Assembly: GCF_013385985.1 (NCBI RefSeq)
Contig: NZ_JACAOY010000006.1
Location: forward strand, 333,121-391,731
Direction: 5' to 3'
From: Pseudomonas sp. B6002
GTDB lineage: Bacteria > Pseudomonadota > Gammaproteobacteria > Pseudomonadales > Pseudomonadaceae
DNA: 58,611 nucleotides
The notes under the pieces were generated by a model that saw only the letters and a list, made by a program, of their open reading frames with translations, was not told where the DNA came from and ran no database searches. The position numbers and the translations under genes were made by a program. Position 1 is the first letter of the stretch. Every line of letters starts with the position of its first letter. Below are positions 25,333 through 36,433 of the stretch, in pieces.

Positions 25333-26889
25333 ATGGAATGGTTAGCGGATCCAACGGCCTGGCTCGGCCTGTTGACCTTGATTGTGCTGGAATTGGTACT
25401 GGGCATCGACAACCTGGTGTTTATCGCGATCCTGGCGGACAAACTGCCACCGGAGCAGCGTGACCGTGCGCGGTTGATCGGTTTGTCCCTGGCACTGCTG
25501 ATGCGCCTGGGCCTGTTGGCGAGTATTTCCTGGTTGGTGACCCTCACCCAGCCACTGTTCGAGGTGTTCGACAAGAGCTTCTCCGGCCGTGATCTGATCA
25601 TGCTGTTTGGTGGTGTGTTCCTGTTGTTCAAGGCCACCATGGAATTGCACGAACGTCTTGAGGGCCATGTGGCCCAGCGCACGGGTAACGTGGCTTACGC
25701 GATGTTCTGGCCGATTGTGGCGCAGATCGTGGTGCTTGACGCGGTGTTCTCCCTCGACGCGGTGATTACCGCCGTGGGCATGGTGGACGAACTGGCGGTG
25801 ATGATGATCGCGGTGATCGTGTCCATTGGCCTGATGATCGTGGCGAGCAAGCCGCTGACCCGTTTCGTCAACGCCCACCCGACGGTGATCATGCTGTGCC
25901 TGGGCTTCTTGATGATGATCGGTTTTGCCCTGACCGCCGAAGGCCTGGGTTTCCATATTCCGAAGGGCTACCTGTACGCGGCCATCGGTTTCTCGATCCT
26001 CATCGAAGGCTTCAACCAGATTGCCCGCGCCCGTCGCAAGAAATCTGCTCAAGGCGTGTTGCCGGTGCGTGAACGTACCGCCCACGCAGTGATGCGTTTG
26101 CTGGGCGGCCGTAGCCTGGCGGTGGAAGAGGTGGGTGAGGAGGTGGCCGACCTGCTCGGCGAGCCGGATGCTGCGCAAGGCCCGCTGTTCGACCGACGCG
26201 AGCGCGTGATGATCAGTGGTGTGCTGCAACTGGCGGAACGCCCGATCCGCACGCTGATGACGCCGCGGGCCAAGGTCGACAGTATTGATCTGGCAGACGA
26301 TCCGGAGACGATCCGACGCAAATTGATGCACTCGTCCTACTCGCGATTGCCGCTGATCCGCAACGGTGCCGTGGACGAGCCCTTGGGCTTCGTGCACAAA
26401 AAAGAGTTGCTCAAGGAATACCTGGCCGGCAATGAACCGAACCTGGAGCACCTGGCACGTCGTGCGGTCAACCTGTTGGAGAGTTTCTCGGTGCTCAACG
26501 CCCTGGAGCAGATGCGCCAGGAATCCACCCACATCGCCTTCGTGATCAACGAATTCGGTGACTTCATGGGCGTGTTGAGCATGACCGACATCCTTGAATC
26601 CATCGCCGGTGAGTTGCCCGACGCCAGCGAAATCGAAGGCCCGGACATCGTCGAGGAAGGTGAAGGTTTTCGTGCCAATGGCGCATTGACCCTCAACCAG
26701 GTGCGCCAACGTACCGGCTTCCAGGCCGTGGCAACCGAGGACTACCAGACCCTGGCCGGCCTGGTGATGAGCCTGCTCGATCGCCTGCCGGTGGTGGGCG
26801 ACAGCCTGGTGCACGAGGGCTGGCGCCTGACCGTGGCGGCGGTGGAAGAGCGGCGCGTAACCCAAGTGCTCATGGCGCGTGAAACGTAA
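25333..26889 (+). CDS. TerC-family membrane protein with CBS and CorC domains
   Basis: A 518-residue inner-membrane protein. Seen: an N-terminal TerC domain (about residues 1-235, seven hydrophobic segments, with conserved acidic [12 protein letters not shown] and [15 protein letters not shown] motifs), a pair of CBS domains (about 295-420), and a CorC/HlyC transporter-associated domain (about 430-515). The architecture matches E. coli YoaE/YegH. TerC proteins are linked to manganese export or envelope metal supply; direct function here is unproven. The 3' end overlaps the convergent GGDEF gene by 20 bp. Confidence 0.9.
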
Positions 26890-27949
26890 ACCGGTCCTTG
26901 CCCTCATGCTTTGAAATATAGAGCGCCTGATCCGCCTTGATCAGCGCCTGGTTCAATGTCTCACCGTCCTCCACCCGGGCCAGGCCGATACTGATGGTCA
27001 CCGGGTGTTGGGTCGGTTCTTCGCGCACGCGGCGGCAGAGCAAGGTGGCCAACTGCTCGACGTCGCTTTTGCGCACGCCTGCCAGGTAGATGCCGAACTC
27101 TTCGCCGCCCAGGCGCGCGTAGTCGAAGTCAACCATCACCGCTTTGATGTCCTGGGCCACACGTTTGAGTACTTCGTCGCCGATGTCGTGGCCGTATACG
27201 TCATTCACTTTCTTGAAATTGTCGATGTCGATCATCGCCAGGTAGTGATCGTGGGCCTTGGGCTGTTGGCTGAGTTTCTTGCCGGCGCTGGTCATGAAGG
27301 CGCGACGGTTGGGGATTTCGGTGAGAGTGTCGAGGTAGGCCTGGTCCAGCAGCAACTTGGCCATGATGAAGTTGTACAGCTTGGCCTGGCGCAGTTTCAA
27401 AAAGCTGTAGAGGGTCAGGAAGGTGAGGAACGCCGCGTAGAAAAACACCATGGTGCCTTTGAATTCCAGCAGCGACGTATGGGTCAGGTAAAACGGGTTG
27501 AGCAGCACCCAAGTGATCACCATCGCCGTGATGAACGACCAGTGTTTGAGCGGCAGCACCGAGGCGCTGTAGAGAATGCTCGATGCCGCCAGGATCAACC
27601 AACTGGGGTGCAAATCGATCGGCAGCCCTTCGATCAACAGGCGCGTGCCGAGGGTGATCACCAGTACGAAAACCAGGTTGATCCACTGGAAGTGCCGGCC
27701 GTCGCGGGTGAATGCCAGGGTGATGGTGTTGATGGTCAGCAGTGTGAGAAACAACATGGACAGCCCGGTAAAGCCCTGGCCTCCGGGAAAGCTGACAATC
27801 AGGTCGAACACCAGCCAGATGCTGATGCTGGCGATGTAGATCAGCAGGCAGAAGGGTTTGAGGCGTTCGAAATCATGCTGGGCAAATTCGCGCTTGAGGG
27901 ATTCCGGGACGGTTTTTTTCAGCACGTCGGCTTCAATGGTTTTGAACAT
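26870..27949 (-). CDS. Membrane diguanylate cyclase (GGDEF), last gene of the nfr operon
   Basis: A 359-residue diguanylate cyclase making c-di-GMP from two GTP. Seen: about five or six hydrophobic segments (residues 30-185), then a complete GGDEF domain with [33 protein letters not shown], active-site RLGGEEFG and [15 protein letters not shown]. The inhibitory RxxD site is not recognisable before GGEEF. Start ATG 27949 has AAGG 6 nt upstream and lies inside the 3' end of the DUF4434 gene (17-nt overlap), so it belongs to that operon. The likely job is to supply c-di-GMP to the MshEN modules of NfrB. Its 3' end overlaps terC by 20 bp. Confidence 0.92.
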
Positions 27950-28814
27950 TATCGACCTTGGCGGCACGCAGGTTGTCGAGGAGCGGCTTGCCTTGTGGCA
28001 AGTAGCGCAGGGCAAAGACGGCGTTTGGATGACAACCGGCAGCCGGTGCAGGCGTCGCGGGCTCGGCGCGGAACGGCTGGCCTTCGGCGCTGGTCTGGCG
28101 GAAGGCTTCACGCACCACACCCACCGGGCAGGGCAGTGCGCTCAGGTAGGTGTTTCGCACGAGCAGCGGCAGGCGCCCCGTGCCAGCACCGTCCTGGGCC
28201 CAGGGCTGGATGCCAGCGGTTGCCAGCTCCCCCAGCCACTGGCCAAAGACGGCGGGTGCCAACTTGCCGGCGCTGAACGCGCTGATGTGCAGTGGCGCGT
28301 CCAGTTGCCTGCGCAAGTCCAGCAATTGACGCTGCAACTCGGTGCGGCGATCGGCGGCCTGGAAGTGCAGGTCGTCCAGCTCCATCGGCAGGTACCAGCC
28401 CGTCGCCGGTAACTTCCAGTCCTCGCGCAGGCGTTGGTACTGCTGCAGCGAACGCCCCAGTTGCGCACGCCAGTAAGCCGCAAGCCCGGCGCTGTCCAGT
28501 TCCTGGATGCGCTGGTAATAGGCCGGGTCCATGTACAAACCCAGCACCAGCTTCAAACCCTGGGCCTGGGCCTGGCGCAGGCTGTTGGCCAGCCAGCCTT
28601 GTGCACCACCAAAACGCGCATCGTCGCCGTAGGCGGTCCATTGCACGATCACGGTGTCGACCCCGCTTTTGGCACTGGCCTGCCAGATTTGCTGCCATTG
28701 CCGGGGTGTGAGGGCCGCATCGCTGTTGAGGGGTTGATAGAACACGCGCTCGGCGGCGAACAGCGTTTGCGCGCTGATCATCAACAAACAAAAAACCAGC
28801 ATCAGTCGTTTCAT
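27933..28814 (-). CDS. YbcH-like periplasmic DUF4434-type protein
   Basis: A 293-residue exported protein. Seen: a signal peptide (MKRLMLVFCLLMISAQTLFA), then a TIM-barrel-like pattern with FYQPLNSDAALTPRQWQQ, GVDTVIVQWTAYGD, LKLVLGLYMDP and WYLPMELDDLHF, as in DUF4434 proteins, some of which resemble glycoside hydrolases. Size and position, directly after nfrA, match E. coli ybcH. It starts on the last base of the nfrA stop (TGATG) and overlaps the GGDEF gene. A role in trimming or modifying the exported polysaccharide is inference. Confidence 0.78.
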   Translation of the reverse strand: MKRLMLVFCLLMISAQTLFAAERVFYQPLNSDAALTPRQWQQIWQASAKSGVDTVIVQWTAYGDDARFGGAQGWLANSLRQAQAQGLKLVLGLYMDPAYYQRIQELDSAGLAAYWRAQLGRSLQQYQRLREDWKLPATGWYLPMELDDLHFQAADRRTELQRQLLDLRRQLDAPLHISAFSAGKLAPAVFGQWLGELATAGIQPWAQDGAGTGRLPLLVRNTYLSALPCPVGVVREAFRQTSAEGQPFRAEPATPAPAAGCHPNAVFALRYLPQGKPLLDNLRAAKVDNVQNH

Positions 28815-31800
28815 CAGAAATTCAGCTCCACACCCAACAACACGCCATTGCCACCTTCATACAGGTTGCCACCCAGGGACTGCTGGTACTCGGTGCGAAC
28901 GGTCAGGTGCGCACGATAGGCGTTGTACTTGTCGTCATCGAACCAATATTGCCAGCGCAGGCCGACGCCGGTGCGCAGGTCCTGGCGCCAGGCGTTGCGC
29001 GGGTCCTGCGCGGAGAACTCGACAAAGCCATAGGGCATGATGGTTTGCGGGCTGCTGTAGGGCAGTTTCCACACATGGCCTTGTTGGTAGCGCGACAGCC
29101 ATTGGTGGTCACCGGCCTTGGTCCACCAGGCCGCATCGAGGTACAAAAAGCGCTCGTTCCACTGGCTTTCATCCACCCGCCAGTCGTTGCGCCATTTGCC
29201 CTGATCAAGGAACGAGGCGGTGCTGCGCAGCAGGTAGTCGGTGCTGGTGCGGCCGTCCTTGCGATGGTCGTTGAGCTGGTCCCAGAGGTGGCCGGGATCC
29301 AGCATCTGGCCAAGGCTCAGCCCGTGATTGTTATCGGCATCGAACTGGCTCTGTTTGTAGATTTCGCCATAGAAGTTGATGTTCGCGTTGCCCCACGGTT
29401 TGTAGCGCAGGCCCACACCGGTGGCCAGGGACTGTGCGTAAGTGGAGCGCCCTTCACCCCCCAGCAATACGCGACCGTACACCGACAGGGTGCTGCCGGC
29501 GCGGCTGGGTTCTTCGCCCAGCGCATGATCCCACATGGCAATTTGCACGTTCTGCGACGCGGCGCGGCGCTGGCCGCTGCGCTCGTCCGGGCGGAAATTG
29601 TCGTTGGTCGCCACGCCGGCCGGTGACCAGGTGCTGGCGATTGTCACGCTGTCACGCCGCGACAAGCTTTCGTGGGCACGGCGCTGGCGATAGCGACGGG
29701 CTTCGAGGCTGCCGTCCTCGTCATCGCCGGCGACCGGGTGCTGCTCCAGGTCTATCACCCGGCGCAGCTCTGCACGGGCCGACGCGCTGTCGGCGATTTC
29801 GTCGTAGCGCCAGGCCAGGGTCTCACCCAGGCTGTAATCCTCCGGGTAATCCCGGGTGGCTTGTTGCAGGAAAGGGATCGACAAACGACGCTCTTCAGGC
29901 GTTTGCGCGCCGGCGAGGCGCATGCCGTAGTCGGCGCGGTAACGCGGGTTGCGCTGGTCGCGGCGTACGGCTTCGGCGAGCCACGCGGTGCTTTGCGGCA
30001 AGTCACCGGCTTTTTGCGCAGTGACCGAGGCGGCGTAGAAGTTGTCCGCGTCCGGCGCTTGTTGCAGTGCGTGGCGTTGGCGTTCCAGGGCCTGTTGAAA
30101 GAGGTCGCGGCGTTCAGCGATGGCGGCGCCCAGCGCCCATTCCTGGGTACCACGGGTTTTACTGAGTTGCCAGTAATGTTCGGCCGTTTCTGTGTCATTC
30201 ACATTCAGGGCACTGCGGCTGGCGGTGAGCAGGGCGTTGTCGCTCAGTTGGCCCGGCGGCACGCTGCGCCACAGCCGCAGGGCGCCGGCCGAATCCCCGG
30301 CCGCTTCCAGGGCGTAAGCCAGTGGCAATGGATCCTGGCGACCGTCCAGCTGTTGCGCGGCCTGGTAATACGCGACAGCGGCGCCGGGTTGGGTCGGCAT
30401 CGCGCAACGCCCCAGTGCCCGCAGTGACCCGGCATCGTTGGGCGAGGGGCCGACGGCAGCTTGCACCGTGGTGCACTGGCCGTTCTCTGCCAGTTGTGCA
30501 AGCAACTGACCACGGGTGGCGGGGTCGACCTGATTGAGCAGACGGCTCATGCGTTGCAATTGCGCGGCATTCAAGGGGCCGCTGCCATAGAAAGCAGCCA
30601 GGCGTTGCAACAACGGCGTGGGCAGACGTGGCTGGCGGTCGTAAGCCTCTTCAAGCAAGGCTTGAGCCTGGGCTTGCCGGCCTTGCTGGACCAGCAGGTA
30701 CGTAGCTTGGTCGAGGGCGACCAGATTGCCGCTTTGCCGGTAGCTGCGCTCCCACAGTTGCGCCGCTTCGGCAGTGCGGCCACTGGCTTGCAGCAGCTCG
30801 GCGCGTTTCTTCAGCACGGCCGGGGTTTGCGGTTGATGGGTCAGCCAGTCCATTGCCTGGCCGCGCTGGCCGGTGGCTTGCCAGGCATCCAGCAAGCTGT
30901 CGCGTCGCGCGCTTTCCCAAGGTTCGGGCAGGCGTTGGCTTTGCAACAGGTCGACGGCTTGCAGGCGTTGCGCCAGCACCAGCCAGGTGTGTGGATCCTG
31001 CTGGGCGTCACAGCGTTTGAGCTGGGCGAGGGCTGCTTCCGGGTCATGGCGTGACAGCCACTCAGTGGTTTCCAGGCAAGGCCGCTGCAGTTGCTCGCTC
31101 AGGCGCTGCACGGTCGGCGCGTCATCGGTTTGCCGCGCCAGCTCCCACAACCGCTGGCGTTGTTGTGGATTGGCGAGGTCATCGGCCGGCAACGATTGCA
31201 GCCAACGCTGGGCCTGGGCAACGTGGCCGACGGCGACGGCGCGGTCGACCATGGCCAGGCGGGCCTGTCGGGCATCTTCCGCGTTCGGGGCCTGTTTCAA
31301 CAGGCCCGTCAGGCCCGGCTCATCCAGGCGTTGCACATAGGCATTGGCCAGGCGCTGCCAGCCCGCTCGGTCCAGCTGTTTGCGCTCGGCCAGCGGCGCC
31401 AGTTGGCGGATGGTGTCGTCCCAGTCATGCAGTTGCTCGGCCCAGTTGGCGCGGGCCAGGCGCAACACGGTGTCGTCGCCTTGGGGTGGCAGTTGGGCCA
31501 GCCAGTCGTGGGCGCGGGCTGCGCCACCGAACTTGGCCAGGCTCAGGCTATAGGCCTGCCATAAACGGATGCGCTGGGGCAGGGTGGCCTGGGCTATCCA
31601 GCTTTCCACCTGGGCGTTGCCTGGCGGGTCCTGTTCGATCCAGGTCAGGTGCAGCTCCAGCAGGGCGTCGCTACCGGCCGGTTGGCCGGCCAGCACCTGG
31701 GCGGCGTCCTTGTAGCGCCGTTGTTTGGCCAGGGCTTGCACCAGCAGGTCGCGAGCTTCCTCGTTGTTCGGCACGCGTTCGAGCAGGTGGCGGGTCAGTC

Positions 31801-31963
31801 GCTCGACTTCCCGCCAGTTGCCTTTCTTGGCCTCGCGGTAACTGCGGTCCATGAAGGGGTAGCTGCGAAATTGTTCAAAATCGGTCAACGGGGCGGCCAG
31901 CAGAGGCGCGCTGTACAGCCCCAGGAGCAGGCTGGCGATGGCCAGGCGCGGGGTGGGTGTCAT
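28814..31963 (-). CDS. nfrA: NfrA-type outer-membrane protein (phage N4 receptor family)
   Basis: A 1049-residue outer-membrane protein. Seen: a signal peptide (about residues 1-23, ending LLAA), a long run of TPR-like helical repeats (to about residue 770), and a C-terminal region of alternating strands (about 800-1049) ending in VELNF, typical of a beta-barrel. E. coli NfrA (990 residues) is the receptor of phage N4 and the proposed exporter of a ManNAc-containing glycan made by NfrB. Here too it follows nfrB, with an ATGA overlap. The TPR-plus-barrel plan resembles AlgK/AlgE, PgaA and BcsC export proteins. Confidence 0.9.
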   Translation of the reverse strand: MTPTPRLAIASLLLGLYSAPLLAAPLTDFEQFRSYPFMDRSYREAKKGNWREVERLTRHLLERVPNNEEARDLLVQALAKQRRYKDAAQVLAGQPAGSDALLELHLTWIEQDPPGNAQVESWIAQATLPQRIRLWQAYSLSLAKFGGAARAHDWLAQLPPQGDDTVLRLARANWAEQLHDWDDTIRQLAPLAERKQLDRAGWQRLANAYVQRLDEPGLTGLLKQAPNAEDARQARLAMVDRAVAVGHVAQAQRWLQSLPADDLANPQQRQRLWELARQTDDAPTVQRLSEQLQRPCLETTEWLSRHDPEAALAQLKRCDAQQDPHTWLVLAQRLQAVDLLQSQRLPEPWESARRDSLLDAWQATGQRGQAMDWLTHQPQTPAVLKKRAELLQASGRTAEAAQLWERSYRQSGNLVALDQATYLLVQQGRQAQAQALLEEAYDRQPRLPTPLLQRLAAFYGSGPLNAAQLQRMSRLLNQVDPATRGQLLAQLAENGQCTTVQAAVGPSPNDAGSLRALGRCAMPTQPGAAVAYYQAAQQLDGRQDPLPLAYALEAAGDSAGALRLWRSVPPGQLSDNALLTASRSALNVNDTETAEHYWQLSKTRGTQEWALGAAIAERRDLFQQALERQRHALQQAPDADNFYAASVTAQKAGDLPQSTAWLAEAVRRDQRNPRYRADYGMRLAGAQTPEERRLSIPFLQQATRDYPEDYSLGETLAWRYDEIADSASARAELRRVIDLEQHPVAGDDEDGSLEARRYRQRRAHESLSRRDSVTIASTWSPAGVATNDNFRPDERSGQRRAASQNVQIAMWDHALGEEPSRAGSTLSVYGRVLLGGEGRSTYAQSLATGVGLRYKPWGNANINFYGEIYKQSQFDADNNHGLSLGQMLDPGHLWDQLNDHRKDGRTSTDYLLRSTASFLDQGKWRNDWRVDESQWNERFLYLDAAWWTKAGDHQWLSRYQQGHVWKLPYSSPQTIMPYGFVEFSAQDPRNAWRQDLRTGVGLRWQYWFDDDKYNAYRAHLTVRTEYQQSLGGNLYEGGNGVLLGVELNF

Positions 31964-34137
31964 GAGGCAAGCTCCTCCGTGAGCTGGTACGCGGCGCGCT
32001 GTTCCTGTTGCTGGTCGGCCAGGGCTTGCTCCAGCACCTGGGCCGTGATGATGCCGCGCTCGATCAGGTACTCGCCAAGGGAGGCTTGCTCGGCGTTGAA
32101 ACCAATCAGCGCCTGGTTGAACAGCGTTGGCGGGACCAGCCCGCGCACCTGCAACAGGTTGCCCAGCAACACCTGATGGCGGCTGACCCGCTCGATCAAC
32201 GCCTCGTCATCGGCATGCCGCTCCAGCACGGCGAGCATCTGGCGTGTTTCGTCATTTTGCCTCGGGCTGGGATACCAATAGCGAATGCCCAGGGTCACTC
32301 GGCCTTGAGGGGCAAGGCGGCAGCGCACCTGGCGCTTGAGTTGGCGGCTGATGGCGCCCTGGGACACATGGCTGAGCGACCCCTCGCAGGCCAGCACCAG
32401 GGTGGCACCTTCTTCCGCCACCGGCAGCACGCCGTAGTGCACGGCCACTTTGCGCGGCACCGAGCGAATCAGTTCTTCATTGAGCTTGAATGGGTTGAGC
32501 GGCGCCCATTCCAGCTCCAGTTGCTCGGCCAGGGCCTGCACCAGCTGCGTGCTGTTGATGAAGCCGCGCAACAGCAGCTCGCGCCCCAGTCGCCGACGCA
32601 CCGGGCTGGTGAGTGCCTGAGTCAGTTGCGCCTCGGTGAGCAGGCCTTGTTCCACCAGGCGGCTGCCCAGGGGCGTGCGCTGGGCCTTGGCCAGGGCCGG
32701 GAACTCGTGGGTGGTCTTGTCCCAGGCCACGCGGCGCGAGTCGCCCATTTCCATGACCTGGCGCAGTGCCCGCAGGTTGGCGAAGAAGTTGACGAAGTTG
32801 CTCCACATCATCCGTGGCGCCGAGAGCAACCCCTCGAAAATCCCGTAGAACCGCGTGACGAACCACGCCCGCTGAAACAGACGGTTGAACAGCATCAAGC
32901 CGTTGAGCCACAGCAGCGCCGAGAGCAACGCGCTGTCGGCCAGGATCGACTGGAAGCGCCAGGCATCCGGCAACAGCAGGGTGGTCAGCCACATGGCCAC
33001 CAGCACCAGGAACAGCAGGTTCACCAGAAAACTCAGCAGGTAGGCAATCAGCCCGCGACGGTCACGCCACAGGAAGTAATTGAGCAGGCCCTTGCGGCTC
33101 CAGCCCAGGTTGGTGGTGCCCTGGAACACAATGCCGACGATCCAGCGCGACTTCTGGCGGATTGCGTGCTGCCAGTCGCGGGGGAAGTGCTCGCGCACGC
33201 AAATCACTTGGGAAAACGCGCGGTTCATGCCGATGACCCACGGCTGTTCCAAGGCGAGCTTGGGGTCGGAGATTGAGTAGCGCGCAAAGATGCATTTCAT
33301 GCCTTTTTGCTTCAGGCGGAAACCGATGTCGTAATCTTCGGTGAGGCTCTGCACATCGAAGGCAATGCCGTCGCCGTCTTCCAGCAGGGCACTGATGGCC
33401 TTGCGGCTGAAGCAGGTGCCCACGCCGGCGCTGGGCACCTGGCCGGTCAGGGCCTCGCGCACGATCACGTCCTTGCCATGGTTCTCGGCGAACTCGTCGA
33501 CGTAGTGCCCCGCGGTAAACCCGTGCCATTCAGGGGCGTAGGGGTACACCGGAATCTGGATCAGGTCCTTGGCCGGCAGCAGGTAGTTGAACAGCCGCAG
33601 TTCCATGGGCGAGATGACGTCTTCGGCGTCGTGCAGGATGAACCCGGCGAACTCGATTTTGGCGTCGGCTTCAAAGCGCAGGATCGCGTCGATGATGTTG
33701 TTCAGGCAGTCGGCCTTGCTGGTGGGGCCGGGCCGCGCGCACACCACTTTATGCACATTGGGGTAATGCAGGCACACAGCGTCGACGTCGGCCTGGGTGT
33801 CCGGGTCGTTGGGGTAGGTGCCGACGAAGATCTGATAGTTCTCGTAGTCGATGGTCGAGGCCGCCAGCCGCGCCATCTCACCGATCACGCCGACCTCGTT
33901 CCAGGCCGGCACCATGATCGCCAGTGGCTGCTCGGTGCGCTCGAACAGGCGCTGCTCGTCGGCGCGGTCGAATTTCTCGTAGATGCGCCAGCGCCGGATG
34001 AGCTTGCGGGTCCAGTAGACCAGGTCGATGAACAGGTCATCCAGGCCCAGGATAAACATCAGCAAGGCCAGGGTGATTGCCAGGTATTTGAGGCCGAACA
34101 GCACATAGGTGATGAAGTCGATAGCGGTCAGGCTCAT
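31960..34137 (-). CDS. nfrB: NfrB-type glycosyltransferase with MshEN-like c-di-GMP modules
   Basis: A 725-residue inner-membrane glycosyltransferase. Seen: N-terminal membrane segment(s), a GT2 domain with MVPAWNEVGVIGEM, the acidic HDAEDVISP motif and the QxxRW motif (QKSRWIVG), further membrane helices (about residues 375-450), then C-terminal MshEN-like repeats (LGSRLVEQGLLTEAQLTQAL, RRLGRELLLRGFINSTQLVQ; again LLGNLLQVRGLVPP and SLGEYLIERGIITAQVLEQA). MshEN modules bind c-di-GMP, and E. coli NfrB is reported to be activated by it. Start ATG 34137 overlaps the wecB stop (ATGA). Expected substrate: ManNAc-type sugar nucleotide from WecB. Confidence 0.92.
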   Translation of the reverse strand: MSLTAIDFITYVLFGLKYLAITLALLMFILGLDDLFIDLVYWTRKLIRRWRIYEKFDRADEQRLFERTEQPLAIMVPAWNEVGVIGEMARLAASTIDYENYQIFVGTYPNDPDTQADVDAVCLHYPNVHKVVCARPGPTSKADCLNNIIDAILRFEADAKIEFAGFILHDAEDVISPMELRLFNYLLPAKDLIQIPVYPYAPEWHGFTAGHYVDEFAENHGKDVIVREALTGQVPSAGVGTCFSRKAISALLEDGDGIAFDVQSLTEDYDIGFRLKQKGMKCIFARYSISDPKLALEQPWVIGMNRAFSQVICVREHFPRDWQHAIRQKSRWIVGIVFQGTTNLGWSRKGLLNYFLWRDRRGLIAYLLSFLVNLLFLVLVAMWLTTLLLPDAWRFQSILADSALLSALLWLNGLMLFNRLFQRAWFVTRFYGIFEGLLSAPRMMWSNFVNFFANLRALRQVMEMGDSRRVAWDKTTHEFPALAKAQRTPLGSRLVEQGLLTEAQLTQALTSPVRRRLGRELLLRGFINSTQLVQALAEQLELEWAPLNPFKLNEELIRSVPRKVAVHYGVLPVAEEGATLVLACEGSLSHVSQGAISRQLKRQVRCRLAPQGRVTLGIRYWYPSPRQNDETRQMLAVLERHADDEALIERVSRHQVLLGNLLQVRGLVPPTLFNQALIGFNAEQASLGEYLIERGIITAQVLEQALADQQQEQRAAYQLTEELAS

Positions 34138-35285
34138 GGGCGAACGCTCGCCGACTGTGCCTGCCACCACTGCATCAGGCGTTCGGTGATGCGTTCGCTG
34201 GCGTGACCATCGCCGTAAGGGGTGTGCACGCGGCTCATGCGCTCGAAGATCGCCGGGTCGTCAAACAGCTCGCTGGCATGCTTGACGATGCGGTCGGCGT
34301 CGGTGCCCACCAGCAGCACGGTGCCGCCTTCGAGCACCGAGGGGCGTTCTGTCACATCACGCAACACCAGCAACGGCTTGCCGATGGCCGGGGCTTCTTC
34401 CTGTACGCCGCCGGAGTCGGTGAGGATGAAACGCGCACGGCCCATCAGCCACACAAAGTGCTGGTAGTCCTGTGGCGGCACCAGGTAGATGTTGGGCTTG
34501 TTGGATAGCATGCGGTACACCGCGTCCTTGACCTTAGGGTTCAGGTGCACCGGGTAGACGAACTGGGCCTGGGGATAGCGCTCGGCAAGCCGGGCCAGGG
34601 CCTGGCAGATCTGGTTGAAGCCGTCGCCGAGGTTTTCCCGGCGGTGGCCGGTGATCAGCACCATGGGCCGCTGGGGTTCCAGCACCGCCAGCGGTGAGTC
34701 GGGCGCCGGCTGCCAGTGGTGGGTGTGTTGCTGGTCGCGCATCCACAGCAAGGCATCGATCACGGTGTTGCCGGTGACCTCCACATGCTCGGCAGGCACA
34801 CCTTCGCGCAACAGGTTGTCGCGGGCCTTGGTGGTGGGGGCGAAGTGCAGGTCGGCGAGCACCCCGGTCAGGCGGCGGTTGGCCTCTTCCGGCCAGGGCG
34901 CCTTGAGGTTGCCGGTACGCAAACCGGCCTCGACATGGCCGATGGGCAACTGGCGGTTGAAGGCGGCGAAACTGGCGATGAAGCTGGTGGTGGTGTCGCC
35001 GTGCACCAGCACCATGTGCGGTTGCAGGCGTTCGTAGGCGTGGTCGAGTGCGCCGAGCAATTGCTGCGACAGGCCGTTGAGGGTCTGGCCCTGGGTCATC
35101 ACTTGCAGGTCTTCATCGACCGTCAGTACAAACCCGTCGAGGACCTGCTGGAGCATTTCCCGGTGCTGGCCGGTGGAGCAGATCTTCAGTTCGATGCCGG
35201 GTGTGTGTTTGAGTACCCGGGCCAGTGGGGCCATCTTGATTGCTTCAGGGCGGGTGCCGAATACCATTGCGATCTTGAAGTTCAT
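34134..35285 (-). CDS. wecB: UDP-N-acetylglucosamine 2-epimerase
   Basis: A 383-residue non-hydrolysing epimerase that interconverts UDP-GlcNAc and UDP-ManNAc. Seen: MVFGTRPEAIKMAP at the N-terminus, HVEAGLRTGN, VTGNTVIDALLW and TDSGGVQEEAPAIGKP, all hallmarks of WecB/MnaA enzymes. In E. coli wecB lies in the enterobacterial common antigen cluster and is needed for N4 infection; here it is the first gene of the nfr operon and overlaps nfrB (ATGA). That linkage points to UDP-ManNAc as the building block of the exported polymer. Confidence 0.95.
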   Translation of the reverse strand: MNFKIAMVFGTRPEAIKMAPLARVLKHTPGIELKICSTGQHREMLQQVLDGFVLTVDEDLQVMTQGQTLNGLSQQLLGALDHAYERLQPHMVLVHGDTTTSFIASFAAFNRQLPIGHVEAGLRTGNLKAPWPEEANRRLTGVLADLHFAPTTKARDNLLREGVPAEHVEVTGNTVIDALLWMRDQQHTHHWQPAPDSPLAVLEPQRPMVLITGHRRENLGDGFNQICQALARLAERYPQAQFVYPVHLNPKVKDAVYRMLSNKPNIYLVPPQDYQHFVWLMGRARFILTDSGGVQEEAPAIGKPLLVLRDVTERPSVLEGGTVLLVGTDADRIVKHASELFDDPAIFERMSRVHTPYGDGHASERITERLMQWWQAQSASVRP

Positions 35286-35373
35286 GGGCTGATCTCTGAC
35301 TGCGAGGCCGTTTATCCAAGAACTTCATACAAGCAGCGAAACAGAGGGTTGTCCAATGCCCCTGTTGTGGTTT

Positions 35374-35387
35374 TTGACGTAGATCAA
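35374..35387. promoter_or_regulatory. ANR/FNR-type site upstream of the wecB-nfr operon
   Basis: The sequence TTGACGTAGATCAA fits the ANR/Dnr/FNR consensus TTGAT-N4-ATCAA at 9 of 10 defined positions. It lies 89 nt upstream of wecB and overlaps the stop codon of the thioredoxin gene. A possible -10 (GGATAA on the minus strand, 35316-35311) would place the site near -76. The role is predicted only. Confidence 0.5.
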
Positions 35388-35728
35388 CCGGGTTGCGCGG
35401 TGCCGGATTCCTGGGTGGCATAGCGGCTGAAGAGGGCATTGAGGGTGTGTTCCTGTTCATTCCAGGCGCCTAGTCCTTCCAGCTTTTCGACCATTTGGCC
35501 AGCACGGAATACCAATAGCGTGGGCAGGCGGATGACGTCTGGGTGTCGGGGTGTCTGGGTCGTGTCGAGGACCATGCTTTTCACCTGATTGGCGTGCTGA
35601 GCAGCGGTGCGTTCGAACAGTGGGCCGGATTCTCTACACGCCGGGCAATGAGCGGACACGAATAACAGAAACACCACGTGATGTTTCGCCAACACCCGTT
35701 GGTACTCTTCGGCGCTCGCAATACCCAT
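35384..35728 (-). CDS. Thioredoxin-fold protein with CPAC motif
   Basis: A 114-residue single-domain thioredoxin-like protein without a signal peptide. Seen: the redox motif CPAC (SAHCPACRES, about residue 28), in place of the usual CGPC, and the cis-Pro region LPTLLVFRAG. The CPAC motif and the small size suggest a specialised reductase or a bacilliredoxin/trxA-like role; the target is unknown. It is on the same strand as the downstream wecB operon, 98 nt away. Confidence 0.8.
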   Translation of the reverse strand: MGIASAEEYQRVLAKHHVVFLLFVSAHCPACRESGPLFERTAAQHANQVKSMVLDTTQTPRHPDVIRLPTLLVFRAGQMVEKLEGLGAWNEQEHTLNALFSRYATQESGTAQPG

Positions 35729-35825
35729 GACAATCTCCTTGTGCTAAAGGCCGGACTGGCACCTTTGTGTACGCTAAACCGCGAGATCAAAGCGGTCTAC
35801 TGTCAACCTTCACAGGTGTTGGCAC

Positions 35826-36074
35826 TCACGCGTCTTTGTCACGCTCGATACGTTCACGCGCCTTGCGGGCCTGGCTTGCACACTTCCTGTATTCCTCATT
35901 GTCCCGGGACGCCTTGGCCCGGCGGTAACCGTGGTGGTTCTGGCTGGTGTAGTCGGTACTGAACGCGTCCTTGAGCTTGCGCAACTCCTCTTTGCATTGG
36001 CGGCGGTCGTTGCTGGCCGACGCATTGCCTGCCACGAGAAGGGAAAGCACCAGCAGGGTAATGCCGAGTTTCAT
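35826..36074 (-). CDS. Small secreted Arg/Lys-rich protein
   Basis: An 82-residue protein I do not recognise. Seen: a signal peptide (MKLGITLLVLSLLVAGNASA) followed by a highly charged, mostly helical segment with two cysteines (RRQCKEELRKL and YRKCASQARK), which could form a disulphide. The start is ATG 36074, with AGGAACC-like pairing upstream. It lies between a thioredoxin-like gene and a REP doublet. Confidence 0.6.
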   Translation of the reverse strand: MKLGITLLVLSLLVAGNASASNDRRQCKEELRKLKDAFSTDYTSQNHHGYRRAKASRDNEEYRKCASQARKARERIERDKDA

Positions 36075-36102
36075 CAATGCAGGTTCCTCATGATTTCGTC
36101 CC

Positions 36103-36190
36103 TGTAGGAGCCGGCTTGCCGGCGAAAAACGTCTGGGCGCCGTGTGATGTCAGGTTAATTGCGTCATCGCCGGCAAGCCGGCTCCTACAG
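36103..36190. repeat. REP doublet, GTAGGAGCCGG type
   Basis: Inverted REP copies between the small secreted protein gene (minus) and the ABC transporter operon (plus), well upstream of the latter's promoter. Confidence 0.9.
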
Positions 36191-36433
36191 AGCTGGTGTG
36201 TTCAATTTGCCTTGAGGCTAGCGCAATGCGTCGATTTTTCCACGCATGCCGGTGCACCGCGATTGTGCGCGGTAACACCGTTGTGGCGCACTCGTTTGGG
36301 GCTGTCACCGGGGCGTGGGGCCTCTGGTAGCAACCGGTTGCTCGGTGCTGGCGTAACGCCTTGTCTGGCGAAGAGATTTATCTCGCTGATTTATATCGAA
36401 TTTATCCCTGACATATTTTTCTGTTACGGCGTG
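36191..36433. other. Gene-free upstream region of the ABC operon
   Basis: 243 nt without a convincing gene, turning AT-rich towards its right end. It would be the place for enhancer sites of the sigma-54 promoter at 36434; I cannot pick out a specific one. Confidence 0.4.

What the first reader, a model, noticed from the sequence alone, without database searches (positions are those of the whole stretch)
26870..35285. Self-contained c-di-GMP-controlled glycan export operon: wecB-nfrB-nfrA-DUF4434-GGDEF
Seen: five minus-strand genes, each overlapping the next (ATGA, ATGA, TGATG, 17 nt). They encode a UDP-ManNAc-forming epimerase, a GT2 enzyme with MshEN-like repeats, a TPR/beta-barrel outer-membrane protein, a YbcH-like exported protein and a complete membrane diguanylate cyclase. 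Known, from memory: in E. coli NfrB is a c-di-GMP-activated glycosyltransferase whose product, exported by NfrA, is the phage N4 receptor; WecB supplies ManNAc, and the cyclase and wecB lie elsewhere in the genome. Inference: this operon packages sugar supply, signal synthesis, polymerisation and export into one unit, so the cyclase is a dedicated local activator. It could be a little-studied Pseudomonas exopolysaccharide and phage-receptor system.
Basis: partly seen in the sequence, partly recalled or inferred. Interest (0 to 1): 0.82.

Follow-up and report, generated by a model that had tools for sequence, protein, structure and literature searches.

The report
Pseudomonas Nfr surface-sugar operon with cyclase
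A five-gene set in a Pseudomonas genome that very probably makes and exports a surface sugar chain under control of the messenger c-di-GMP; the arrangement is already in print, but the messenger-making gene is also kept by Pseudomonas that lack the sugar genes, and some phages recorded on a species with this operon bear relatives of a phage N4 tail protein.

Summary
In detail: five intact minus-strand genes (wecB, nfrB, nfrA, DUF4434, GGDEF), overlapping as stated. The system is already published: PMC8669469 reports wecB joined to nfrB and a cyclase beside nfr 'in most pseudomonads' (passages). The inference of a dedicated cyclase is only partly right. Among 299 genomes of the window's genus, 48 have both this nfrB type and the cyclase, 9 only nfrB, 17 an intact cyclase without it. 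The lone cyclases keep their catalytic motifs, so they probably do other work too. Two additions. NfrB carries a second MshEN-like tandem at its C-terminus, which my word searches in the two NfrB papers did not find mentioned. Relatives of N4 tail protein gp64 occur in 22 Pseudomonas-named phage records; a near-identical phage pair is recorded on E. coli MG1655 and on P. taiwanensis, a species with this operon. This makes a shared Nfr receptor across genera testable. c-di-GMP binding, glycan and transcripts could not be tested; no structure prediction was obtained.

The parts
34134..35285 (-). wecB: non-hydrolysing UDP-GlcNAc 2-epimerase (UDP-ManNAc supply), 383 aa
   Evidence: PF02350 1.2e-111; TIGR00236 465 bits, cut-off 210
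31960..34137 (-). nfrB: GT2 glycosyltransferase with C-terminal MshEN, 725 aa
   Evidence: NF008411 1231 bits, cut-off 1170; GT motif columns compared in 153 rows
32521..32673 (-). MshEN tandem 1 of NfrB, aa 489-539
   Evidence: aligned to c-di-GMP-bound MshE 5htl, E 1.2e-10; NF053729 best stretch 489-539
32011..32169 (-). second MshEN-like tandem of NfrB, aa 657-709
   Evidence: hhalign of tandem 1 against tandem 2: 98.3%, E 1.8e-14; 7 control pairs at most 1.7%. Gly659, Gly688, Gln709 in 104 of 104 rows of this type. Against: no significant PDB match of the fragment alone
28814..31963 (-). nfrA: exported TPR and beta-barrel outer-membrane protein, 1049 aa
   Evidence: NfrA_C 4.1e-27; NF007302 1071 bits, below its cut-off 1223
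27933..28814 (-). DUF4434 exported protein, ybcH-like, 293 aa
   Evidence: PF14488 5.2e-21; NF007404 359 bits, cut-off 344
26870..27949 (-). membrane diguanylate cyclase: about 195 aa of hydrophobic N-terminus plus GGDEF (GGEEF), 359 aa
   Evidence: PF00990 3.2e-37; catalytic residues invariant in 47 of 47 linked copies, window included; N-terminus with only weak Pfam matches in 31 members
35384..35728 (-). thioredoxin-like gene upstream, same strand, possibly co-transcribed
   Evidence: PF00085 3.6e-10; next to the lone cyclase in five loci where the nfr genes are absent

Best explanation
This is a Pseudomonas Nfr system. WecB turns UDP-GlcNAc into UDP-ManNAc; NfrB in the inner membrane polymerises it; binding of c-di-GMP to the C-terminal MshEN part of NfrB switches it on; NfrA carries the chain through the outer membrane; the DUF4434 protein is an accessory. 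The membrane cyclase at the end of the operon often supplies c-di-GMP nearby, but it is a partner, not an exclusive one: some Pseudomonas keep it for other targets. Shown here: gene content, order, family membership, motif conservation, linkage. Inferred from E. coli work: substrate, activation, export, receptor role. Inferred only: that this cyclase feeds this NfrB.
For: Family models. Of 57 full-length loci of this nfrB type (window included), 48 have wecB and 47 the cyclase in the fetched locus, one more genome has the cyclase across a contig break. nfrB and cyclase co-occur: 48 both, 9 nfrB only, 17 cyclase only, 225 neither; odds ratio 71 (not corrected for kinship). The 9 loci without wecB lie in genomes with another PF02350 gene of 409-417 bits, in line with the rule stated in PMC8669469. 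GGEEF and DIDNFK-type residues intact in 47 of 47 linked copies; no RxxD at the inhibitory place (position of that site recalled). E. coli biology: PMC8669469, PMC8669472 (passages).
Against: 17 intact cyclases without this nfrB; 9 nfrB without the cyclase. 31 of 45 linked loci measured have a gap before the cyclase, up to 347 nt, so co-transcription is not assured. The Arg9 and Gln32 places of MshEN motif I are Pro. One linked cyclase (L041) is split by a frame break. Promoter and terminator scans show nothing beyond shuffles. No binding, transcript or glycan data; NfrA falls under its curated cut-off.
Confidence: 0.8

Rival explanations
1. One reading: the cyclase is a dedicated local activator of NfrB and has no other role.
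For: Linkage in 48 of 57 nfrB genomes and strong co-occurrence. E. coli NfrB is served by one particular cyclase, DgcJ, by direct contact (PMC8669469, passages). Other lineages have GGDEF proteins near nfr too: 4 of 25 non-Pseudomonas loci (no background rate computed).
Against: 17 of 66 genomes with the cyclase have an intact copy without this nfrB type (15 of them without any NfrB match, two with another nfrB-like type); well-supported branches of the cyclase tree force at least 6 changes between linked and lone. dN/dS in 7 pairs within lone clades is 0.055-0.29, in 5 linked pairs 0.095-0.20.
Confidence: 0.2
2. The cyclase is a general signalling gene that merely lies next to nfr, without functional tie.
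For: Five lone cyclases sit at the window's own place, between the SBP/thioredoxin genes and the TerC gene, with the nfr genes missing. Cyclase absent from 9 genomes with nfr.
Against: The link also holds in loci where no SBP or TerC match was found and in P. nitroreducens- and P. citronellolis-type loci, so it is not one shared neighbourhood. Co-occurrence odds ratio 71.
Confidence: 0.25
3. The glycan is not ManNAc-based; wecB is there for another surface polymer and NfrB uses another nucleotide sugar.
For: Product called uncharacterised in the passages read. Twelve distinct NfrB rows of this type with the cyclase have no wecB in the fetched locus.
Against: wecB lies before nfrB in 48 of 57 loci; the 9 genomes without it there have another wecB-class gene. 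In E. coli wecB, but neither wecA nor wecC, is needed for N4 (PMC8669469, PMC8669472, passages).
Confidence: 0.1

Closest known systems
E. coli nfrBA-ybcH with DgcJ and WecB (NGR, the N4 glycan receptor pathway)
   Same: NfrB equivalog with GT2 and MshEN, NfrA, DUF4434/YbcH in the same order
   Different: Here wecB and a cyclase lie in the same gene run. The cyclase has a hydrophobic N-terminus in place of the dCache domain reported for DgcJ and is no DgcJ by NCBIfam (86.6 bits, cut-off 500).
Pseudomonas nfr operons of Junkermeier & Hengge 2021 (P. soli SJ10 and 'most pseudomonads')
   Same: wecB joined to nfrB; GGDEF protein after ybcH (passages)
   Different: No difference in kind seen; lone cyclases and a second MshEN-like tandem were not in the passages I read.
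Second nfrB-like clusters of Pseudomonas (wecB, BcsB-like, NfrB-like, NfrA-like, AlgX-type genes)
   Same: wecB beside an MshEN-bearing NfrB-like GT
   Different: 36-41% NfrB identity, BcsB-like protein and acetylation genes (2 loci scanned), no cyclase of this type in 19 of 19 loci examined. Like the Achromobacter and Simplicispira clusters described in PMC8669472 and PMC8669469.
BcsA cellulose synthase with DgcC
   Same: Same logic: c-di-GMP-gated synthase served by one cyclase
   Different: PilZ sensor (PMC8669472) rather than MshEN.

Membership tests
NfrB (c-di-GMP-activated glycosyltransferase) | equivalog model NF008411 over cut-off | tested here: met
   1231 bits, cut-off 1170
NfrB (c-di-GMP-activated glycosyltransferase) | processive GT motifs DxD, TED, QxxRW | tested here: met
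   window has LHDAEDVI, SLTEDYD, IRQKSRWIV; TED string in 153 of 153 aligned rows, the six commonest strings at the other two places cover 152 and 145 of 153
NfrB (c-di-GMP-activated glycosyltransferase) | binds c-di-GMP | not testable with these tools
   shown in print for E. coli NfrB 414-745 (PMC8669469)
MshEN domain | c-di-GMP contact residues of both 24-residue motifs | tested here: inconclusive
   Motif II: R516, L517, G518, L532, L536, Q539 kept. Motif I: L490, G491, L505, L509 kept, the R9 and Q32 places are P489 and P512. E. coli NfrB also departs there (own reading) and binds c-di-GMP.
WecB | TIGR00236 over cut-off | tested here: met
   465 bits, cut-off 210
NfrA | NfrA_C domain; NF007302 over cut-off | tested here: inconclusive
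   PF13283 4.1e-27 met; NF007302 1071 bits against 1223 not met
active diguanylate cyclase | GG(D/E)EF and metal/substrate residues | tested here: met
   GGEEF and DIDNFK..ND, 47 of 47 linked copies; activity itself not testable
DgcJ | NF040885 over cut-off; dCache plus GGDEF | tested here: not met
   86.6 bits, cut-off 500; no dCache match in 31 members
N4-type phage receptor system | phage adsorption depends on nfr genes | not testable with these tools
   only indirect phage records

The most novel reading that the evidence does not exclude
The Pseudomonas operon makes the same, or nearly the same, glycan as E. coli (NGR), and phages use it to cross between genera. Phage Halfdan is recorded on E. 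coli K-12 MG1655, and a variant 98.7% alike over 11.6 kb of its tail region is recorded on P. taiwanensis. Its 915-aa tail protein joins a part like the N-terminal region of N4 gp65 to a part like N4 gp64, and both host species have nfr. A second bold reading, also open: NfrB has two c-di-GMP modules, not one.
Probability: 0.3. Interest if true: 0.78.

Novelty: already known. Interest (0 to 1): 0.42.

Why it matters
The operon is an understudied Pseudomonas relative of a pathway worked out in E. coli in 2021, whose polymer is called uncharacterised in the passages I read. If the Pseudomonas product is the same polymer, the N4 glycan receptor would be a surface sugar shared across genera, which would explain how nearly the same phage is recorded on E. 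coli and on Pseudomonas, and soil Pseudomonas would give a second source for working out its structure. The lone cyclases warn against reading 'same operon' as 'dedicated' in c-di-GMP signalling, and give natural experiments (the same locus with and without nfr) to separate local from general signalling.

Tried and rejected
Exclusive dedication of the cyclase: rejected as a strict claim because of the 17 lone copies. Self-sufficiency through lack of any other epimerase: the genome has a second PF02350 protein; it lies beside wbjC (NF047837, 723 bits), so it is probably the FucNAc-pathway epimerase, although at full length it scores 221.5 bits, just over the wecB cut-off of 210. At first I noted that the short nfrB-like type (about 566-592 aa) lacks MshEN (note); the alignment showed that it keeps the first tandem and lacks the later part. 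Promoter and terminator scans of 26600-36300 gave nothing beyond shuffles; Rfam and tRNA scans of the window were empty. The window NfrA has no PDB match; NfrB matches only MshE and PilB chains there. A structural test of the second MshEN-like tandem could not be made, and that fragment alone has no significant PDB match (best E 0.033; MshE 5htl 0.51).

Rows dropped: of 118 genomes matched by NfrB, 57 have the full-length close type; G221 (truncated nfrB) and G007 (degraded locus) were set apart; the about-40% types were sampled (13 of 36 genomes with the about-706-aa type, 6 of 6 with the short type); G075, a split match, was not fetched for NfrB; the rest are MshEN-only matches and were not used. 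In the motif table open frames outside 501-849 aa were left out; its 104 close rows are 89 distinct. In the tree (quick method), L071 is scored 'no cyclase', but its genome has one across a contig break. The 80 named loci overlap the unnamed set in 15 identical NfrB pairs, so the two counts must not be added. L078 has no detectable DUF4434.
Full report
What is there. Pfam and NCBIfam identify WecB, NfrB, NfrA (by its C-terminal domain), a DUF4434 protein and a GGDEF protein. The cyclase most likely starts at the ATG at 27949; the longer frame begins at an upstream GTG.

Prior knowledge. Two 2021 papers (PMC8669469, passages; PMC8669472, passages) report for E. coli that NfrB binds c-di-GMP through an MshEN domain, needs DgcJ (with DgcQ as back-up), depends on WecB and makes, with NfrA, the N4 glycan receptor. 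PMC8669469 also states that wecB is joined to nfrB where no other wecB exists (example P. soli SJ10), that a GGDEF protein is associated with nfr in most pseudomonads, and that as a fourth gene it suggests a specific role.

Gene order. Of 299 genomes of the window's genus, 57 (window included) hold a full-length nfrB at 74-100% identity. In the loci fetched around them, 48 of 57 have wecB and 47 of 57 the cyclase, in the same order; L078 has no detectable DUF4434. One more genome has the cyclase beyond a contig break. In the 80 named loci (capped list), 42 of 55 Pseudomonas loci have the cyclase and 48 have wecB; 0 of 25 non-Pseudomonas loci (Halomonas-type, Thalassospira, Vibrio, Photobacterium, Aeromonas, Enterobacterales, betaproteobacteria, cyanobacteria) have this cyclase, and 16 have wecB within the flanks held. 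On the NfrB tree (quick method) the cyclase-bearing rows lie within one clade of 88 rows, 16 of them without it. The 9 loci without wecB are in genomes with another PF02350 gene of 409-417 bits (one of these, L114, scores as wecB), as the published rule predicts. But four genomes that do have operon wecB also hold another of that class (G264, G239, G268, G269), so it is not a strict trade-off.

The cyclase. All 47 linked copies keep GGEEF and the DIDNFK...ND residues; no RxxD lies at the usual inhibitory place (position recalled from PleD). One of them (L041) is split by a frame break. The N-terminal stretch of about 195 aa is strongly hydrophobic; in 31 members Pfam gives there only weak matches (DUF2070 in 15 members, best E 0.0066). 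The window's genome has no second copy of this stretch among 36 GGDEF match places.

Against exclusive dedication. The N-terminal stretch was searched in the same 299 genomes: 66 have it. 48 also have nfrB of this type; 17 have an intact cyclase without it (15 of them with no NfrB match; G244 and G075 have other nfrB-like types); one (G088) has a 42-residue remnant. Nine have nfrB without the cyclase. All 17 lone copies keep GGEEF and D[IV]DNFK, and well-supported branches force at least 6 changes between linked and lone. Five lone copies sit at the window's own place, 68-224 nt after the thioredoxin-like match and next to the TerC gene, with no tblastn match to wecB, nfrB, nfrA or DUF4434; one (L211) keeps wecB and the cyclase only. 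dN/dS in seven pairs within lone clades is 0.055-0.29 and in five linked pairs 0.095-0.20. In the four lone loci whose neighbours were scanned these vary (HPP family, RpiR-type regulator, outer-membrane efflux protein, threonine dehydratase, histidine kinase, aldo/keto reductase). Co-occurrence is still far above chance (odds ratio 71; P 9e-32, not corrected for kinship). I conclude: a frequent partner, not a dedicated one.

Cyclases beside nfr elsewhere. Four of 25 non-Pseudomonas loci have some GGDEF protein within the flanks held. In a betaproteobacterial MAG (L187) a dCache-GGDEF protein lies directly before wecB; in Vulcanococcus (L188) one is divergent to nfrB; in Polynucleobacter L184 one lies downstream on the other strand, with two further GGDEF proteins in the flanks; L183 has a PAS-GGDEF-EAL protein after DUF4434. 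dCache-GGDEF is the architecture reported for DgcJ, but the three tested score only 90-97 bits as DgcJ, cut-off 500. No background rate was computed.

NfrB ligand sites. Aligned to MshE 5htl (contacts from PMC5013675, passages), motif II keeps all six contact residues compared; motif I keeps L10, G11, L25 and L29 but has Pro for R9 and Q32. E. coli NfrB also departs at these two places (own reading) and still binds with a Kd near 1 uM (PMC8669469), so the change is not decisive. There are two tandems: the profile of aa 484-545 against that of aa 648-715 gives 98.3% and E 1.8e-14 in register, while seven control pairs give at most 1.7%. Gly659, Gly688 and Gln709 are in 104 of 104 rows of this type. 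Against a working second site: NCBIfam's c-di-GMP motif model, on the second tandem alone, reaches 32 bits here over only half its length and 47 bits in E. coli (cut-off 38); the fragment has no significant PDB match; and its first glycine is Ala in 7 of 7 enterobacterial and 4 of 5 betaproteobacterial rows. It may be a structural copy rather than a binding site. My word searches in the two NfrB papers found no second MshEN; PMC8669472 speaks of a domain of unknown function in the C terminus.

Phage side. N4 gp64 has matches in 322 of 50,697 phage records, 22 of them named Pseudomonas phages; N4 gp65 in 118, 13 of them Pseudomonas. From the rows seen the 22 records (14 named phages; several are GenBank and RefSeq copies) are: 17 with P. 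syringae hosts, 2 with P. taiwanensis, 3 with 'Pseudomonas sp.'. One phage name, Alpheus, is recorded on both P. syringae pv. avii and P. taiwanensis. A further record, Halfdan_Juelich_variant, is named after Escherichia but has P. taiwanensis as host. It is 98.7% identical to Halfdan (host E. coli MG1655) over 11.63 kb, with 2 differences in the 915-aa tail protein, whose parts match gp65 (31%) and gp64 (55%). P. taiwanensis DSM 21245 has the full operon with cyclase (L169); the strain used for the phages was not checked. nfrB-like DNA is in 5010 of 5426 E. coli genomes. PMC7552041 (passages) places Halfdan nearest to Acinetobacter and Pseudomonas phages. Against: host fields are as deposited; Nfr dependence of these phages is unknown to me; PMC6467409 (passages) finds LPS chains to be the likely first receptor of an N4-like P. 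aeruginosa phage; PMC11990801 (passages) found no NGR dependence among its newly added phages. No paper holding 'Lebethron' is in the library. The published P. syringae nfrB marker primer (PMC6960962, passage) fits the second nfrB-like type best (L092 with 3 mismatches, L094 and L102 with 4; no locus of the window's type within 4; forward primer), so the P. syringae phages may target the product of that other cluster. The reverse primer gave only scattered weak matches.

Verdict. A well-formed member of a published system; the dedicated-cyclase inference is weakened; two testable extras (second MshEN-like tandem, cross-genus phage link). Other papers were seen as listings only. Interest 0.42.

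Noticed in passing
L090-L108 (sampled): A second nfrB-like lineage in Pseudomonas: wecB, BcsB-like protein (about 735 aa), NfrB-like GT, NfrA-like TPR/barrel protein, AlgX-type (and AlgF or MBOAT) acetylation genes; 36 genomes with the about-706-aa type and 6 with a shorter type among 299; no cyclase of the window's kind in the 19 loci examined.
   Followed up: partly
L202, L203, L214, L216, L218: Same chromosomal place as the window with thioredoxin-like gene, cyclase and TerC gene but no nfr genes: natural with/without pairs.
   Followed up: yes
L211: wecB and the cyclase remain side by side while nfrB, nfrA and DUF4434 are absent.
   Followed up: partly
L187:1283-2854; L188:8386-9867; L184:17084-18592: dCache-GGDEF proteins (the architecture reported for DgcJ) near nfr in betaproteobacteria and a cyanobacterium.
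   Followed up: partly
L198:4732-7479; L199:4765-7452: Single phage tail proteins that join a non-contractile tail sheath N-terminal domain (PF23844) to a gp64-like TIM barrel (PF23845); N4 has gp64 and gp65 as separate proteins.
   Followed up: partly
L089 and L109 (genomes G221, G007): Decayed nfr loci: G221 has a truncated nfrB; G007 has partial nfrA and DUF4434, no full nfrB, and no PF02350 match in the genome.
   Followed up: no
window 26870-26889: The cyclase and the convergent TerC/CorC-type gene (25333-26889, plus strand) overlap by 20 nt.
   Followed up: no
L003 (G000:C17): FucNAc-type gene run (wbjC, epimerase, probable glycosyltransferase frame) on another contig of the window's genome.
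   Followed up: partly
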